The notes beneath the pieces were generated by a model, which saw nothing but the letters and a program-made list of their open reading frames with translations, did not search any database and had not been told where the DNA came from. A stretch of DNA of 33,117 nt from an uncultured Mediterraneibacter sp. (lineage in GTDB: Bacteria; Bacillota; Clostridia; Lachnospirales; Lachnospiraceae), in NCBI GenBank assembly GCA_944384505.1, contig CALWTQ010000041.1, forward strand, positions 1 to 33,117. Direction: 5' to 3'. Below are positions 1-33,117 of the stretch, piece after piece. The position numbers and the translations under genes are program-made. Within the stretch, counting starts at the first letter, position 1. Every line of letters starts with the position of its first letter.

Positions 1-66
1 GATGCGGGAAAGCCGCACGTCCGGATCTGAGAGGGGTAAGTCTCGCAAGGGGCTTATCTACTCAAC
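1..66 (+). ncRNA. Group II intron, 3' end (domain V part and domain VI), truncated by window edge
   Basis: The first bases read as the distal half of domain V: a GAAA-capped stem (GCGG-GAAA-CCGC type) followed by the CACGTCCGG strand. Then comes a domain VI hairpin, GTAAGTCTC-GCAA-GGGGCTTAT, and the terminal CTACTCAAC typical of bacterial group II introns. The 5' part, any reverse transcriptase and the 5' exon lie outside the window. The 3' boundary at 66 is inferred by aligning the next bases (CGCTCAGACAA) with uninterrupted copies of the same repeat near 26111 and 32733. The class cannot be assigned from this fragment. Confidence 0.75.
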
Positions 67-658
67 CGCTCAGACAAATCTCTCCGTCTGCCCCAACATC
101 CGTAACCGGAACTTCGAGTTTCACTAATTCCCTTCCGAAGGCGCCCGTCGCCATCCTCCATCCCCGCAGAATCTTTCTCGAAATGGGGCTGTTTTCTGGG
201 CTTCACAAATCGGACATCAGTGAATATATAGCTTCCAGAAGTAAGGCGCGGCCGGAAGACTTTCGCAATGGAAGGCCTCCAAGCCGCGCCAACTGCGCTT
301 TACAGCTCCGTTTAGGACAGTGACACTTCTGTCTGGGAATGCGCAGGAAGCGGAGCGGATATTTTGAGCGTATGATCTGAGGAAGGGGACAGGAGGGACA
401 TGCGCCTTTGGAGGAATCTGCTGGAAGATCTTAGAAGGCGGGGAGGTGTTGTTAAGCGGTACGGCGGGGTTGTTTGAGTGAAACGAGTTCCCCGGCGTAC
501 CGCTTTGCTGTTAAACAACTCTTCGGCTTCTTAGATTCTTCCCAGATTCCGGAACGAAGCATGGTACTCCTGTTCCCTTCATCAGAATACGCGTTACAAA
601 ATATCTGTTCCGCTTCCGGATGATTTCAGATGGAAAGTGTTAGTGAACTAAATAGCTG
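67..658 (-). mobile_element. Copy 1 of a gene-free, TIR-bounded giant-hairpin element (inverted, interrupted by the intron)
   Basis: This is the reverse complement of the elements at 25935-26693 and 32558-33079. Its outer end is the terminal repeat at 639-658 (GTTAGTGAACTAAATAGCTG). Hairpin 1 spans about 346-618; its outer arms are GGAAGCGGAGCGGATAT and ATATCTGTTCCGCTTCC. Its tip is at 478-484 (GTGAAAC). The second hairpin (about 67-200) is cut at its tip by the group II intron, so only one arm is visible. No credible gene is present: the 68-codon minus-strand reading frame at 312-518 is hairpin-arm sequence. The element ends 8 bp before the -35 box of the padR promoter, so it forms the whole upstream boundary of that operon. 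Confidence 0.8.
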
Positions 659-23758: not shown

Positions 23759-24580
23759 ATGCCTACAACCTATGCACATTATAAATTCGGAAGGGAAGTT
23801 ATAAGCGCGCTTCCCCGCCCGCTCCAGAGTTCGATCGAGAACAACAGGGAACTCTTTGACATCGGAGTGCATGGTCCAGATATTCTTTTTTATTACCACC
23901 CGCTGAAGAAAAATCCAGTGAGCGGCCAGGGCTATGCCCTTCATGAGCGGCCGGCAGATGAATTTTTCCGGCGCGCCGTCTCGGTGATCAGGGAGGCGGA
24001 CAATCCGGCTGCCGCCAGGGCGTATATTTATGGGTTTATCTGCCATTTCGCGCTGGACAGCGAGTGCCACCCGTATGTTGAAAAGATGATTCAGGAGAGC
24101 GGGATCACTCATTCTGAAATTGAGATGGAGTTCGACCGCCTTCTGCTGAAAGAAGACTATATTAATCCGGTCCGGTATCTGGGGACAAAGCACATTCATC
24201 CATCCGGGGATAATGCCGGTGTGATCGCGCCGTTTTTTGAGGATATTGCACCGGAGAGTGTAGAGAAAGCACTGAAAGGGATGATCTTTTATCATAAGAT
24301 GTTCCTTGCTCCGGGTATGTTTAAGAGAAAGGCTCTTTTTGCAGGGATGAAACTTATCGGACGGTATGAAGGAATGCACGGGATCGTGATGAGTCTCGAG
24401 CCGAACCCGGCATGCAGGGACTACTGCCAGCTTCTTAAAAGGCTGTACGCAGGCGCGGTGACGGCTGCTGCGGGTCTGATCATTCAGTATCAGAAAGTAC
24501 TTTTCGATGATGCGGAGATGCCGGAGCGCTTCCACAGGACGTTCGGCGCGGGGGAAGGCTGGGAGAATCTGCGCCTGTAG
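23759..24580 (+). CDS. Zinc-dependent phospholipase C family protein
   Basis: A 273-residue protein of the zinc-dependent phospholipase C/P1 nuclease-like fold seen in many clostridial hypothetical proteins. Candidate metal ligands are His7 (TYAHYKFG), His38 and Asp41 (GVHGPDILFYYHP), His47, and the His96-Asp100-His104 group in CHFALDSECHPYV. No signal peptide is visible, so unlike secreted toxins such as alpha-toxin it is probably cytoplasmic and not a virulence factor. Its substrate is unknown. ATG 23759 begins the conserved MPTTYAHYKFG; the upstream site AAAAGGGG is weak but usable. A 112-bp gap separates it from the transporter gene, which may share its transcript. Confidence 0.82.
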   Translation: MPTTYAHYKFGREVISALPRPLQSSIENNRELFDIGVHGPDILFYYHPLKKNPVSGQGYALHERPADEFFRRAVSVIREADNPAAARAYIYGFICHFALDSECHPYVEKMIQESGITHSEIEMEFDRLLLKEDYINPVRYLGTKHIHPSGDNAGVIAPFFEDIAPESVEKALKGMIFYHKMFLAPGMFKRKALFAGMKLIGRYEGMHGIVMSLEPNPACRDYCQLLKRLYAGAVTAAAGLIIQYQKVLFDDAEMPERFHRTFGAGEGWENLRL

Positions 24581-24692
24581 CGCAATTTCCGGGCAGAGGA
24601 ATTCCCGATCCGGGACGTGGCCGGGAGGGGCCGGCTTTGCGGCGGCAGATGGCTGCAGCGTTTTATATAGCAAGAAAGAAGGAAATGAGAAT

Positions 24693-25928
24693 ATGAAATT
24701 CAGACTGACTCCGCTGGAGAAAAAGTGGGTGCTCTATGATGTGGGGAATTCCGCGTTTACAATGATGGTATCTACAATCTTTCCGATCTATTTTAATTTC
24801 CTGGCCGGAAATGCAGGGATTTCGGATGTGGATTATCTTGCCTACTGGGGGTATGCTACATCTGTCTGTACACTGCTTGTAGCTATTCTCGGACCAACGC
24901 TTGGAGCGGTGGCTGATACAAAGAATTTTAAGAAAATTATATTTTCTGCTGCAATGGGAATAGGGGTAACAGGCTGTGTGCTGCTGGGATTCTTGTCTTC
25001 CTGGATCTGGTTTCTGGGCGTCTTTGTTCTGGCGAAGACGGGATATTCAGCCAGTCTGATCTTTTATGACGCTATGCTGACGGATGTAACAGAGCCGGAC
25101 CGGATGGACGCCGTATCTTCCCATGGATATGCGTGGGGATATATCGGAAGCTGTATTCCTTTTGTGGCCTGTCTCGGCGTCGTGCTGGGGGCGGGCGGCC
25201 TTGGAATCAGTATGCAGACGTCCATGATCCTTGCGTTTATTATTACAGCTATGTGGTGGCTGCTTTCATCAGTTCCGCTGCTGCGGTCCTATCAGCAGAA
25301 GTATTTTTCTGAGACGGGGACTCACGTAGTGAGAAACAGCTTCAAACGGCTGGGACATACCTTTGCGGAACTGACAAAGCAGAAAAGTATACTTGTATTT
25401 CTGCTGGCGTTTTTCTTCTACATCGACGGTGTGTATACAGTGATTGATATGGCGACAGCCTATGGTCAGGCGCTCGGCCTGGACAGTACGGGGCTTCTTC
25501 TGGCTCTTCTTGTGACTCAGATTGTGGCCTTCCCGTCTGTTCTGATTTTCAACCGGCTTGTGAAGAAGGTGACGCCGGAGAGAATCATCACTGTCTGTAT
25601 TGCGGCGTATTTCTGCATCGCGGTGTACGCCTACTGGCTGGATACACAGTTTGATTTCTGGCTCCTTGCCGTTCTGGTGGGAATGTTCCAGGGAACTATC
25701 CAGGCGTTGTCCAGATCATATTTTGCAAAGATAATTCCAGCGGAGAAGTCAGGAGAGTATTTCGGAATCTACGATATCTGCGGGAAAGGAGCGTCAGTAA
25801 TCGGAACTGCGCTCGTATCCTTTTTAAGCCAGGTGACAGGCAGCATTAACTTCGGAGTCAGCGCGCTGTCAGTTATGTTTCTGATCGGACTTGTGCTGTT
25901 TCAGTTTTCCACAAGACTCAATCAATGA
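24693..25928 (+). CDS. UMF1 (Atg22-like) family MFS transporter
   Basis: A 411-residue protein with about 12 membrane segments. The N-terminus EKKWVLYDVGNSAFTMMVSTIFPIYF is the signature opening of the UMF1/Atg22-like branch of the major facilitator superfamily. VAILGPTLGAVADTKNFKK is the loop 2-3 motif, and GMFQGTIQALSRSYFAKIIPAEKSGEYFGIYDICGKGASVIG is the conserved second-half block. Bacterial members have no firmly known substrates; yeast Atg22 exports amino acids from the vacuole. ATG 24693 is chosen for AAGAAGGAAATGAG upstream and for the start of the conserved sequence. The much longer frame from 24507 reads through the end of the previous gene and is not used. The gene ends 6 bp before element copy 2. 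Confidence 0.88.
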   Translation: MKFRLTPLEKKWVLYDVGNSAFTMMVSTIFPIYFNFLAGNAGISDVDYLAYWGYATSVCTLLVAILGPTLGAVADTKNFKKIIFSAAMGIGVTGCVLLGFLSSWIWFLGVFVLAKTGYSASLIFYDAMLTDVTEPDRMDAVSSHGYAWGYIGSCIPFVACLGVVLGAGGLGISMQTSMILAFIITAMWWLLSSVPLLRSYQQKYFSETGTHVVRNSFKRLGHTFAELTKQKSILVFLLAFFFYIDGVYTVIDMATAYGQALGLDSTGLLLALLVTQIVAFPSVLIFNRLVKKVTPERIITVCIAAYFCIAVYAYWLDTQFDFWLLAVLVGMFQGTIQALSRSYFAKIIPAEKSGEYFGIYDICGKGASVIGTALVSFLSQVTGSINFGVSALSVMFLIGLVLFQFSTRLNQ

Positions 25929-25934
25929 AATGAA

Positions 25935-26693
25935 CGGCTATAAAGTTCAATAACACTTTCCGGCAAAATGTGTCCGGAAGCGGAGCGGATGTTTTGCGAT
26001 ATGTGTTCTGTGAAAGGAGACAGCCGTAAGACGTTCCGTTCCAGAATCCGGAAAATCTAACAGGCCGAAGAGATGTTTAAAGGCAAAGCGGCGCTCCGGG
26101 CAACTCGCTGCGCTCAGACAATCCCTGCGCGCCGCTTAACAACATCTCTCCGCCCTTAAGCTTTTCAGCGGATTCCTCCAAAGTCACATCTTCCGGCTGT
26201 CTCCTTCCCCAGAAAGTGTACTCAAACCGTCCGCTCCGCTTCCTGCGTATTTCCTGTCGGAAGAGTTATTGCCCAAATAGGCTGAACCGTGAAGTTGGCG
26301 CGGCTTGTCGGCTTTCCGTTACGGAAGTCTTCCGGCCGCACCTGCTTCTTGTGACAGCTATATATTCACTGGCTTTCGGCTTGAAAAGCCCAGAAAACAG
26401 CCCCATTTCGAGAAAAATTCTGCGGGGATGGAGGATGGCGACGGGCGCCTTCGAAAGGGGATTAGGGAAAGTTAAAGCTGCGGCGACAGACGTTAGGGCT
26501 GACGGTGGAATTGTCTGAGCGAAGCGAGTTGTCCACCGTCAGTCCTTGCTTTTAGTCTGTCGCCGCAGCTTTTAGTTTCCCTTATCCCCTGGAGCGAAGC
26601 CCTGAGCCATCCTCCATCCCCGCAGAATACGTCTTGAGAATTGACTCTGTTTTCGGACGTTTTACACGTGGAAGTTATTGAACTTTATAGCTG
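25935..26693 (+). mobile_element. Complete copy 2 of the gene-free, TIR-bounded giant-hairpin element
   Basis: Ends are CGGCTATAAAGTTCAATAAC (25935-25954) and GTTATTGAACTTTATAGCTG (26674-26693), inverted repeats with one mismatch and 18 bp perfect. Hairpin 1 spans 25976-26243 (arms GGAAGCGGAGCGGA / TCCGCTCCGCTTCC); its tip is GCTGCGC at 26107-26113. Hairpin 2 has a perfect 23-bp pair (26417-26439 with 26606-26628) and a long inner stem in which 33 of 36 bases pair. Its tip is GCGAAGC at 26519-26525. No ORF is credible: the 100-codon frame at 26216-26518 lies across hairpin arms. No target-site duplication is evident. It lies between the UMF1 gene and the ABC operon. Confidence 0.85.
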
Positions 26694-32557: not shown

Positions 32558-33079
32558 CAGCTATTTAGCGCACTAACATTTCCTGTGACTCATGTCCGGA
32601 AGCGGAGCGGCTGGTCTGCGATACGTATTCTGTGAAAGGGGGGCAGCCGTGCGATGTTCCGTTCCAGAATCCGGAAAATCTAGCAGGCCGAAGAGATGTT
32701 TAAGGGCAAAGCAGCGCTCCGGGCAACTCGCTCTGCTCAGACAATCCCTGCGCGCTGCTTAACAACATCTCTCCGCCCTAAAGATTTTCAGCGGATTCCT
32801 CCAAAGTCACATCTCCCGGCTGCCCCCTTCCTCAGAAAGTATACTCAAACCATCCGCTCCACTTCCTGCGTATTTCCAGACGGAAGTGTTATTGCCTAAA
32901 TAGGCTGAACTGCGAAGTTGGCGCGGCTTGAGGGCTTTTCGACTGCGAAAGTCTTCCGGCCGCGCCTGCTTCTTGTGGCAGCTATATATTCATTAACTTC
33001 CGGCTCGAAAAGCCCAGAAAACAGCCCCATTTCGAGAAAGATTCTGCGGGGATGGAGGACGGCGACGGGCGCCTTCGGA
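32558..33079 (+). mobile_element. Copy 3 of the giant-hairpin element, broken off in its second hairpin
   Basis: The left end is CAGCTATTTAGCGCACTAAC (32558-32577), closer to the copy 1 end than to copy 2. Hairpin 1 (about 32590-32870) has the tip GCTCTGC at 32730-32736. The middle section (GGCGCGGCTTG, ATTCTGCGGGGATGGAGGA) matches the other copies up to about 33079, where copies 1 and 2 continue differently. The 68- and 67-codon reading frames across it are not genes. The element lies beyond the PduL gene, whose promoter is probably in the 101-bp gap between them. Confidence 0.8.
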
Positions 33080-33117
33080 GTCTGCAAATAAAAAGTCAAG
33101 CAGAAATTAATTAATTT
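33080..33117. other. Unrelated AT-rich sequence replacing the rest of element copy 3
   Basis: From GTCTGCAAATAAAAAG on, the sequence no longer follows the element, and the window ends 38 bp later. It could be the edge of an insertion or a deletion junction. It does not begin with a group II intron 5' consensus (GTGYG). Confidence 0.4.

What the first reader, a model, noticed from the sequence alone, without database searches (positions are those of the whole stretch)
25935..26693. Gene-free TIR element made of two giant hairpins, three copies in 33 kb
The sequence shows a 759-bp unit with near-perfect 20-bp terminal inverted repeats and two long imperfect palindromes, repeated at 67-658 (inverted) and 32558-33079. 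It has no transposase or other gene. Stems exceed 100 bp, larger than typical MITEs or REP elements. Sequence differences between copies, such as GGAGCGGAT/CTGTTCC, often keep pairing, suggesting the structure matters. It may be a non-autonomous mobile element that moves as a folded strand, or a large structured RNA. I know of no named family that matches.
Basis: partly seen in the sequence, partly recalled or inferred. Interest (0 to 1): 0.72.

Follow-up and report, generated by a model that had tools for sequence, protein, structure and literature searches.

The report
Giant paired-hairpin repeat element
The window carries a gene-free 759-base repeat, present well over a hundred times in its genome, made of two related giant hairpins facing opposite ways; its folding is kept by evolution mainly on one strand, which points to an unnamed family of mobile DNA that spreads as a folded single strand by means of an enzyme that was not found.

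Summary
The 759-bp unit is real, non-coding and highly repeated: a piece of its hairpin-2 arm occurs 137 times in the genome, its end motif 386 times (reversed-pattern control 0). It is two homologous hairpins in inverted orientation (H1 read on -, H2 on +) plus a small hairpin linker. Pairing is kept by many two-sided changes. G·T outnumbers A·C, on opposite strands in H1 and H2: the strand that carries the tip TTGTCTGAGCG..GCGAGTTG. So the selected form is most likely a folded single strand, not a cruciform. Alleles shared by several copies mostly keep pairs; private ones break about half, so selection acts mainly on propagation. The element is missing in G026 at 5 of 6 sites compared, shows no target duplication, and usually abuts stop codons. 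A model built from H2 finds relatives in 47 of 58 genomes of the genus and inverted pairs in two other genera. No Rfam family, plasmid or phage matched. The mobilising enzyme was not identified; a RAYT of the genome has other ends, and one copy contains an IS200-type insertion. Closest known: BIMEs/REPINs and Caulobacter CIRs, all much smaller.

The parts
25935..26693 (+). complete 759-bp element: H1 + small hairpin linker + H2
25935..25954 (+). left terminal inverted repeat (CGGCTATAAAGTTCAATAAC; usual form in the genome CAGCTATTTAGCGCACTAAC)
26674..26693 (-). right terminal inverted repeat (read on -: CAGCTATAAAGTTCAATAAC)
25935..26300 (-). hairpin unit H1; folds better, and shows more G.T than A.C, on the - strand (last bases overlap the linker; exact inner limit not fixed)
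   Evidence: homologous to H2 in inverted orientation
26031..26189 (-). upper part of H1 found by a model built from H2 copies only (94.5 bits)
26101..26122 (-). tip motif of H1 (ATTGTCTGAGCGCAGCGAGTTG on -)
26265..26284 (+). end-like sequence closing H1 on the inside (GTTATTGCCCAAATAGGCTG)
   Evidence: sequence; inference
26297..26342 (.). linker with small G+C-rich hairpin (GGCGCGGCTTG .. CCGGCCGCACC)
26355..26693 (+). hairpin unit H2; folds better on the + strand; also occurs alone, starting exactly at its inner end
26355..26374 (+). inner end of H2 (CAGCTATATATTCACTGGCT), a third terminal-repeat-like sequence
26443..26602 (+). upper part of H2 covered by model R1 (member of its training set)
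26510..26531 (+). tip motif of H2 (ATTGTCTGAGCGAAGCGAGTTG)
1..658 (-). second copy, inverted, cut by the contig start; H1 at 400-562 (+)
32558..33117 (+). third copy, cut by the contig end; H1 at 32654-32812 (-)
24507..25928 (+). neighbouring MFS transporter gene; its stop codon ends 6 bp before the element

Best explanation
The unit is a non-autonomous mobile element of an unnamed family, built like an oversized BIME/REPIN: two homologous hairpins of about 340-370 nt in inverted orientation around a small-hairpin linker. SHOWN: high copy number, no coding capacity, insertions present in one species and absent at the matching place in others, no target duplication, pairing kept by two-sided changes, strand-biased constraint with the better fold for H2 on the + strand and for H1 on the - strand, occurrence of H2 alone, and constraint much stronger on alleles that have been multiplied than on private ones. 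INFERRED: an enzyme acting in trans recognises the folded single strand (tip, conserved inner sequences, ends CAGCTA..TAGCTG) and moves or copies it into intergenic DNA, probably while donor or target is single-stranded at a replication fork; the inverted pair means that either strand presents one correctly folded hairpin. Insertion mostly directly behind stop codons is partly preference and partly what compact intergenic regions leave free. The enzyme is unknown.
For: Copies. Homologous inverted units: H1(-) v H2(+) local score 34, shuffled 10.5 +/- 1.4, H1(+) 9; a model built from H2 finds H1 on the opposite strand at 92-107 bits, while the wrong strand of H2 gives 46-68. Covariation: cells changed on both sides 287 v 85 shuffled (H2, 33 copies, 5 genomes) and 213 v 66 (H1, 30 copies), 0 of 500 shuffles as high; slid structures fall to 38-52% paired. 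Strand: with Watson-Crick-only consensus structures, pair columns with more G.T than A.C against the reverse are 63:21 (H2,+) and 53:20 (H1,-), and the tip strand folds better in 32 of 33 and 30 of 30 copies; p 5e-6 and 1e-4. Own copies alone: H2 162 v 41, H1 (read on -) 185 v 76. Private alleles break pairs in 47 of 88, alleles in 2-3 copies in 13 of 41, alleles in 4-23 of 47 copies in 30 of 140; first against last p 1.5e-6. No target duplication in 60 copies. H2-only copies with the exact inner end: L074, L085. Element absent in G026 at 5 of 6 own sites compared.
Against: No enzyme was tied to the element. The RAYT-like gene of the genome has its own unrelated inverted repeats, and RAYT presence does not follow element presence (10 of 13 v 12 of 23 genomes by DNA match, G007's weak RAYT match counted as none, p 0.18; by R1, 33 of 47 v 5 of 11, not tested). 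One copy (L039) holds an IS200-type transposase gene between H1 and the linker; read here as a nested insertion, but an autonomous form is not excluded. Part of the strand bias could be mutational: in unpaired columns H1 shows the same direction for both kinds of transition and H2 for C>T over G>A, though not for A>G over T>C; G005 shows no clear bias. Private alleles are also rarer at paired than unpaired sites (0.23 v 0.33 per site), so some selection may act in place. One of the six sites is shared with G026 and G005, so some copies are old or the site is a hot spot. No empty site of a very close relative was available; at the best resolved one about 27 extra bases lie on the far side. G.U tolerance is what an RNA would show too.
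Confidence: 0.6

Rival explanations
1. Structured RNA of 3' untranslated regions: the element is transcribed from the gene whose stop codon it abuts and its distal hairpin, folded on the sense strand, stabilises, processes or ends the mRNA; it spreads or is kept because of that service.
For: 36 of 53 gene 3' ends that face an element lie within 10 bp of it, against 7 of 61 gene 5' ends (genes are the longest open frames, called mechanically); stop codon between -10 and +32 of the edge in 47 of 78 candidate frames; in 4 of 10 convergent pairs the genes are separated by little but the element (L045, L076, L016, L061); invariant U.G pairs 33/33 and 30/30; an element fills a convergent gap in another genus too (L136).
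Against: Private mutations break pairs in 47 of 88. H1 and H2 would each be read in the right sense only after the other hairpin. No T-run directly after the element in most flanks listed and no promoter shown. No RNA data. Compact intergenic regions explain part of the stop-codon contact: 90 element-free tandem pairs have a median spacer of 21.5 bp.
Confidence: 0.25
2. Classical MITE of a DDE-transposase IS with the same terminal inverted repeats.
For: Near-perfect 20-bp terminal inverted repeats; 13 of 60 copies are shorter (403-598 bp) with both ends kept.
Against: No signal of a target duplication of 2 to 16 bp in 60 copies; no DDE-type IS with these ends seen among the loci fetched, though not every open frame was annotated; constraint on the whole fold and on one strand is not needed for such elements.
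Confidence: 0.08
3. Passive palindromes: the arms are kept complementary by hairpin-templated mutation or gene conversion, without selection on a fold.
For: Long palindromes do undergo such correction (general knowledge); repeated deletions take out much of one hairpin; the unpaired columns show part of the same transition bias.
Against: Correction alone would not leave G.T in excess on one strand, and on opposite strands for H1 and H2; conserved unpaired tip and inner sequences; a model of sequence and structure finds the hairpin across genera.
Confidence: 0.05

Closest known systems
BIMEs / REPINs with RAYT (TnpA-REP) transposases
   Same: Two related palindromes in inverted orientation with a spacer, high copy, extragenic, compensatory changes, G.T pairs noted, ends that can supply stop codons (passages of PMC3116915, PMC3733652 and PMC6006769 seen)
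   Different: REPs are 20-40 bp with a GTAG tag, and RAYT genes are often flanked by them; here units of 340-370 bp, ends CAGCTA..TAGCTG, no GTAG tag at the unit ends, and the RAYT of the genome has other ends
Caulobacter CIR repeats (CerM-associated intergenic repeats)
   Same: Two long inverted-repeat arms joined by a linker, conserved motif at a tip, intergenic (passages of PMC2229807)
   Different: The review gives about 100-200 bp for the repeat families it covers; its tip motif GANTC is absent from the tip here; here the arms are homologous, inverted and strand-biased
Bacterial MITEs (RUP, Correia/NEMIS, ERIC)
   Same: No gene, terminal inverted repeats, intergenic, stable fold
   Different: 70-300 bp, mostly with target duplications (passages of PMC3733652 and PMC2229807); no duplication here
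TIRYT-associated terminal repeats (TIRtrons)
   Same: Repeat families tied to Y1 transposases without REPs; the own genome holds such a gene (passages of PMC3733652)
   Different: The inverted repeats of that gene (GGGGACGTAGTAAAAT..) are unrelated to the element
IS200/IS605 family
   Same: No target duplication, hairpins recognised on one strand (general knowledge; passage of PMC6006769)
   Different: No transposase gene of its own; the one IS200-type gene found inside a copy has its own end hairpins

Membership tests
BIME/REPIN | two homologous palindromic units in inverted orientation forming hairpins | tested here: met
BIME/REPIN | REP of 20-40 bp with GTAG/CTAC tag beside the hairpin | tested here: not met
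   unit ends are CAGCTATATATTC.. / ..TTTATAGCTG; read from the alignments
BIME/REPIN | RAYT gene flanked by the same repeats | tested here: not met
   tip motif absent in the fetched loci around 11 RAYT-like or weakly matching Y1 genes in 8 genomes; own RAYT flanked by other repeats; undetected RAYTs not excluded
DDE-type MITE | target site duplication | tested here: not met
   60 copies, lengths 2-16, boundary shifts up to 8
DDE-type MITE | autonomous IS with the same ends | tested here: inconclusive
   none seen in the fetched loci; not all 386 end motifs were inspected and not all frames annotated
IS200/IS605-like ssDNA transposition | no target duplication | tested here: met
IS200/IS605-like ssDNA transposition | hairpins recognised on one strand | tested here: inconclusive
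   strand-biased constraint shown; recognition itself not tested
IS200/IS605-like ssDNA transposition | fixed short target beside one end | tested here: inconclusive
   weak AACAGTT consensus outside both ends
IS200/IS605-like ssDNA transposition | Y1 transposase gene between the element's ends | tested here: inconclusive
   one copy (L039, L191:14888-16320) holds one, with its own end hairpins; 8 other Y1 loci (L172-L179) hold no R1 hairpin; element-rich G026 has no strong IS200-type match
Caulobacter CIR | GANTC at a terminal loop | tested here: not met
   tip is TTGTCTGAGCG..GCGAGTTG
Rfam structured RNA family | match at gathering score | tested here: not met
   only sub-threshold hairpin matches

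The most novel reading that the evidence does not exclude
One class of giant-hairpin elements, marked by the tip UUGUCUGAGCG(2-4 nt)GCGAGUUG, has invaded unrelated bacteria (Lachnospiraceae, Mucispirillum, Pseudomonadales, Gastranaerophilales, Elusimicrobia) with different stems but the same tip, because an undescribed and widely transferred enzyme recognises that tip on a folded strand (ssDNA, or an RNA that is copied back): a new transposition system with strand-specific inverted hairpin pairs.
Probability: 0.27. Interest if true: 0.87.

Novelty: new variant of a known kind. Interest (0 to 1): 0.68.

Why it matters
Bacterial non-autonomous repeats are thought of as small. Here hairpins of about 340 nt, in pairs of about 760 bp, stand well over a hundred times in one genome and recur, with conserved inner sequences and tip, across the genus and in other genera, without a name in the sources searched here. 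The strand bias and the private/shared allele contrast give a way to ask from sequence alone whether such repeats are selected as ssDNA, as RNA, or not at all. If a common enzyme recognises the tip, it would be a new single-strand mobility system that places DNA directly behind genes.

Tried and rejected
Cruciform or plain palindrome: judged unlikely because of the opposite strand bias of H1 and H2, with the caveat on mutational bias given above. The first G.T count on RNAalifold structures favours G.U by construction, so it was replaced by Watson-Crick-only structures. RAYT as partner: the Y1 family matched in 15 of 21 genomes given (G026 and G093 proved to be one genome, so 14 of 20), but in none of six that carry the tip motif (G083, G084, G085, G088, G089, G091), and the tip was absent around 11 such genes; the RAYT of the window's genome has homologues in 38 of 58 genus genomes with no clear link to the element and has its own ends. 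IS200 as partner: one of the Y1 genes of the genome lies inside an element copy, but with its own end hairpins, no R1 hairpin at 8 other Y1 loci, and only weak Y1 matches in element-rich G026 and G005; noticed late and not followed further. Two frames between a weak and a good end motif in L245 are no transposase. Common neighbour gene across phyla: shared proteins were listed by similarity only and not given family searches; none was recognised as a transposase. Plasmid, phage and viral sources: no match to the element in plasmids and phages, no exact tip in viral contigs; 2 viral hits to the end motif were not followed. Rfam: nothing at gathering, only hairpin look-alikes below it. Coding: rejected; open frames are long (87 to 232 codons in 47 copies), and 25 of 47 have an open frame over 282-584, but most carry frame-breaking indels against the window's frame and there is no codon rhythm. 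Empty site of the G021 copy: 12 relatives lack the element, but the junction could not be aligned to the base. Stop-codon targeting as the mechanism: kept only as partial, since element-free tandem spacers are short and at one site (L024) G005 has almost no room between stop and promoter-like sequence. Deletion breakpoints of short variants lie on opposite arms but are mostly not exact pair partners, so they are not used as proof of hairpins in vivo. End repeats: the inner part differs between species, often on both sides (own CACTAAC, G005 CATTAAC), but the two ends of one G026 copy may differ, so this is not used as evidence. Papers: ten searches; a search for GAGCGAAGCGAG anywhere in the text gave three papers unrelated by title (listing only).

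Full report
WHAT IS THERE. The unit at 25935-26693 is as described: 20-bp ends with one mismatch, two long imperfect palindromes, no gene. The window is a complete contig of a draft genome (G000, 141 contigs, 3.95 Mb), and both of its ends lie inside further copies, so those two copies are cut: 1-658 and 32558-33117. In the genome a 35-nt piece of the hairpin-2 arm occurs 137 times (control 0), the end motif 386 times with up to one mismatch (control 0), the tip motif 159 times exactly (control 0). Only 40 of 340 candidates were scored in the BLAST search. If all 137 were full length they would make about 2.6% of the genome. Of 60 copies with both ends in the stretches I fetched (chosen mostly from the first 100 listed sites), 47 are 757-771 bp long and 13 are shorter (403-598 bp); in the 12 of these compared with the window's copy, part or all of one hairpin is missing.

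ANATOMY. The element is two units. H1 (about 25935-26300) and H2 (26355-26693) are homologous in inverted orientation: H1(-) against H2(+) scores 34, shuffled H1 10.5 +/- 1.4 (maximum 18 in 200), H1(+) 9. Between them is a small G+C-rich hairpin. H2 begins at a third end-like sequence CAGCTATATATTCAC, and H2 alone occurs with exactly that start in L074 and L085. Conservation over 13 sequences from five genomes is highest at 101-120 (1.83 bits) and at the two tips (1.72 and 1.77), and lowest just inside the ends (0.84 and 0.95; mean 1.44).

ONE STRAND IS FAVOURED. For H2 on + (33 copies) and H1 on - (30 copies), 95.9% and 97.8% of cells pair; cells with both sides changed are 287 (shuffled 85.4) and 213 (66.4), no shuffle of 500 as high; sliding the partner by 1-3 columns leaves 38-52% paired. 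These alignments used 33 and 30 of the 60 full-length sequences in hand (47 own, 13 of other species), chosen to span species; three G005 copies with a different H1 were left out of the second. Structures drawn without G.U, so as not to favour one strand, still give more G.T than A.C: columns 63:21 for H2(+) and 53:20 for H1(-), p 5e-6 and 1e-4. In the 47 own full-length copies, on the + strand, H1 shows 185 A.C against 76 G.T and H2 41 against 162. Controls and exceptions: in unpaired columns H1 shows the same direction of transitions, H2 shows it for C>T over G>A but the opposite for A>G over T>C, so mutation bias may add to the effect; G026, G021 and G081 agree in direction, G005 does not clearly. 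The tip strand folds better in 32 of 33 and 30 of 30 copies. A double-stranded palindrome or cruciform exposes both strands and predicts no such difference, so the form that selection sees is most likely a folded single strand, DNA or RNA.

WHEN SELECTION ACTS. In the same 47 copies, alleles found once (mutations after insertion, or sequencing error) leave a broken pair in 47 of 88 cases, with G.U:A.C 25:17 (p 0.28). Alleles found in 2-3 copies break 13 of 41. Alleles found in 4-23 copies break 30 of 140, with G.U:A.C 25:7 (p 0.002). First against last: p 1.5e-6. Private alleles are still somewhat rarer at paired sites (0.23 v 0.33 per site). The plain reading is that the fold matters most for being multiplied and less, if at all, afterwards.

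INSERTION. No direct-repeat signal of 2-16 bp flanks the element in 60 copies, allowing boundary shifts up to 8. A weak consensus AACAGTT lies outside both ends, nearly uncorrelated between the two sides; some copies carry a second partial end 9-16 bp further out. Six own sites were compared with G026: at five no element was found there (three by alignment and BLAST; two only by absence of an R1 match beside the orthologous gene), at one it is present. At that site G005 also has it, and 18 other genomes fetched show no R1 match; 15 of these align over the junction: the element sits 7 bp behind the stop codon, before what looks like the next promoter, nothing is lost, and about 27 extra bases stand on the far side. 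Element edges lie within 10 bp of the stop codon at 36 of 53 gene 3' ends, and within 10 bp of the start at only 7 of 61 gene 5' ends (58 of 60 copies had enough flank; genes are the longest open frames of each flank, cut at the element edge). In 13 of 78 candidate frames the stop lies inside the element; many of the 78 are chance frames shorter than the antisense one. In 4 of 10 convergent pairs there is little but the element between the stops; 20 convergent pairs without an element have a median distance of 136 bp. Compact spacers and protection of promoters may explain part of this.

RELATIVES. By the tool's grouping the genome shares its genus with G026, which is Candidatus Mediterraneibacter vanvlietii, by identical coordinates with the genome behind L154 and L162. 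By DNA similarity 14 of 60 other genomes match (13 of 36 in the genus). A model built from 21 H2 upper stems (R1) finds H1 on the opposite strand at 92-107 bits, against 46-68 bits for the wrong strand of H2, and relatives in 47 of 58 genus genomes (own included) at E 1e-3 or better; own and G026 reach the limit of 50 scored candidates. The best match of each of the 47 has E 4e-15 or lower, which by extrapolation lies above the wrong-strand level. Outside the genus it finds Lachnospiraceae UBA1818 (L136, 7e-26 and 3e-19, a -/+ pair between convergent open frames), Blautia sp. Marseille-P3087 (L165, a -/+ pair at about 5e-11 and a further match at 1e-17) and Blautia sp. MSJ-19 (L151, 3e-10). 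So the inverted pair is not a quirk of one genome.

THE TIP. The exact tip with two free positions, 20 fixed bases, was found in 41 stretches of the GTDB-220 collection: besides Lachnospiraceae also Mucispirillum, Pseudomonadales/Porticoccaceae, Gastranaerophilales and Elusimicrobia. About 0.5 would be expected by chance (2.57e11 bases, both strands, even composition; my arithmetic). In 15 of 16 stretches folded it stands at the top of a hairpin; the stems differ between phyla. Of 31 of the 41 stretches given to R1, those outside Clostridia match only marginally (best 2e-4 in a Gastranaerophilales MAG and 4e-4 in a Pseudomonadales MAG; 6e-5 in an unclassified MAG), largely through the tip. In 390 other genomes of the class the tip was absent. 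A patchy but recurrent motif fits a transferred recognition system; this is inference.

THE ENZYME. None was tied to the element. The single RAYT-like gene of the genome has other ends. One copy (L039; L191:14888-16320) is longer by about 670 bp because an IS200-type transposase gene (PF01797, 9e-40) with hairpins of its own lies between H1 and the linker. I read it as a nested insertion: it interrupts the inner end of H1, 8 other Y1 loci carry no R1 hairpin, and G026, rich in elements, has only weak Y1 matches. That it is an autonomous form is not excluded.

MECHANISM AND STANDING. I commit to a non-autonomous mobile element whose moving form is a folded single strand, by analogy with REP/BIME and IS200/IS605 systems, with an unknown enzyme. 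It works like a giant BIME, but is not filed as one: the GTAG tag and the RAYT flanked by the repeats were tested and not met. It is not a DDE MITE as far as target duplication goes. No Rfam family, plasmid or phage record matched. Papers were seen as search listings and passages only (passages of PMC3116915, PMC3733652, PMC2229807, PMC6006769); that no named family matches rests on the ten paper searches and on Rfam. The comparison with hairpin-templated mutation and with ssDNA at replication forks rests on general knowledge.

LIMITS. The genome is a draft with contigs that often end in the copies; the alignments are of related copies, so pair counts are not independent; E-values of R1 are rough; private alleles include assembly error; not all copies or end motifs were read; transcription was not observed.

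Noticed in passing
L131-L171: The 22-nt tip TTGTCTGAGCGNNAGCGAGTTG stands at the top of hairpins with different stems in several phyla, often in several copies per genome.
   Followed up: partly
L039:701-2133 = L191:14888-16320: One element copy holds an IS200-type transposase gene (about 670 extra bp) between H1 and the linker; the left hairpin of that insert, CCCCAGCTATGCTGGGG, contains CAGCTAT, the first seven bases of the element's ends, perhaps by chance.
   Followed up: partly
L180:2265-3032 (G000:C50:19267-20031): Single RAYT-like Y1 gene flanked by inverted repeats GGGGACGTAGTAAAAT (TIRYT-like), unrelated to the element; homologues in 38 of 58 genus genomes.
   Followed up: partly
L015, L017, L028, L058, L084, L089: Some copies carry an extra partial copy of the element end, mostly 16 bp outside the true end and on one side only; origin unexplained.
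   Followed up: no
L247:4116, L251:4113, L257:4405: Solitary element ends of about 20-50 bp with no hairpin behind them.
   Followed up: no
L101, L102, L103 (G005): Full-length elements in G005 whose H1 is not similar to own H1 while H2 is conserved, as if one hairpin had been exchanged.
   Followed up: partly
L206, L207 against L191:6493-6960: One insertion site shared by G000, G005 and G026: either an old vertical copy or a hot spot.
   Followed up: partly
window 1 and 33117; contig ends: Contigs of this draft genome often end inside element copies, so the repeat limits its assembly.
   Followed up: no
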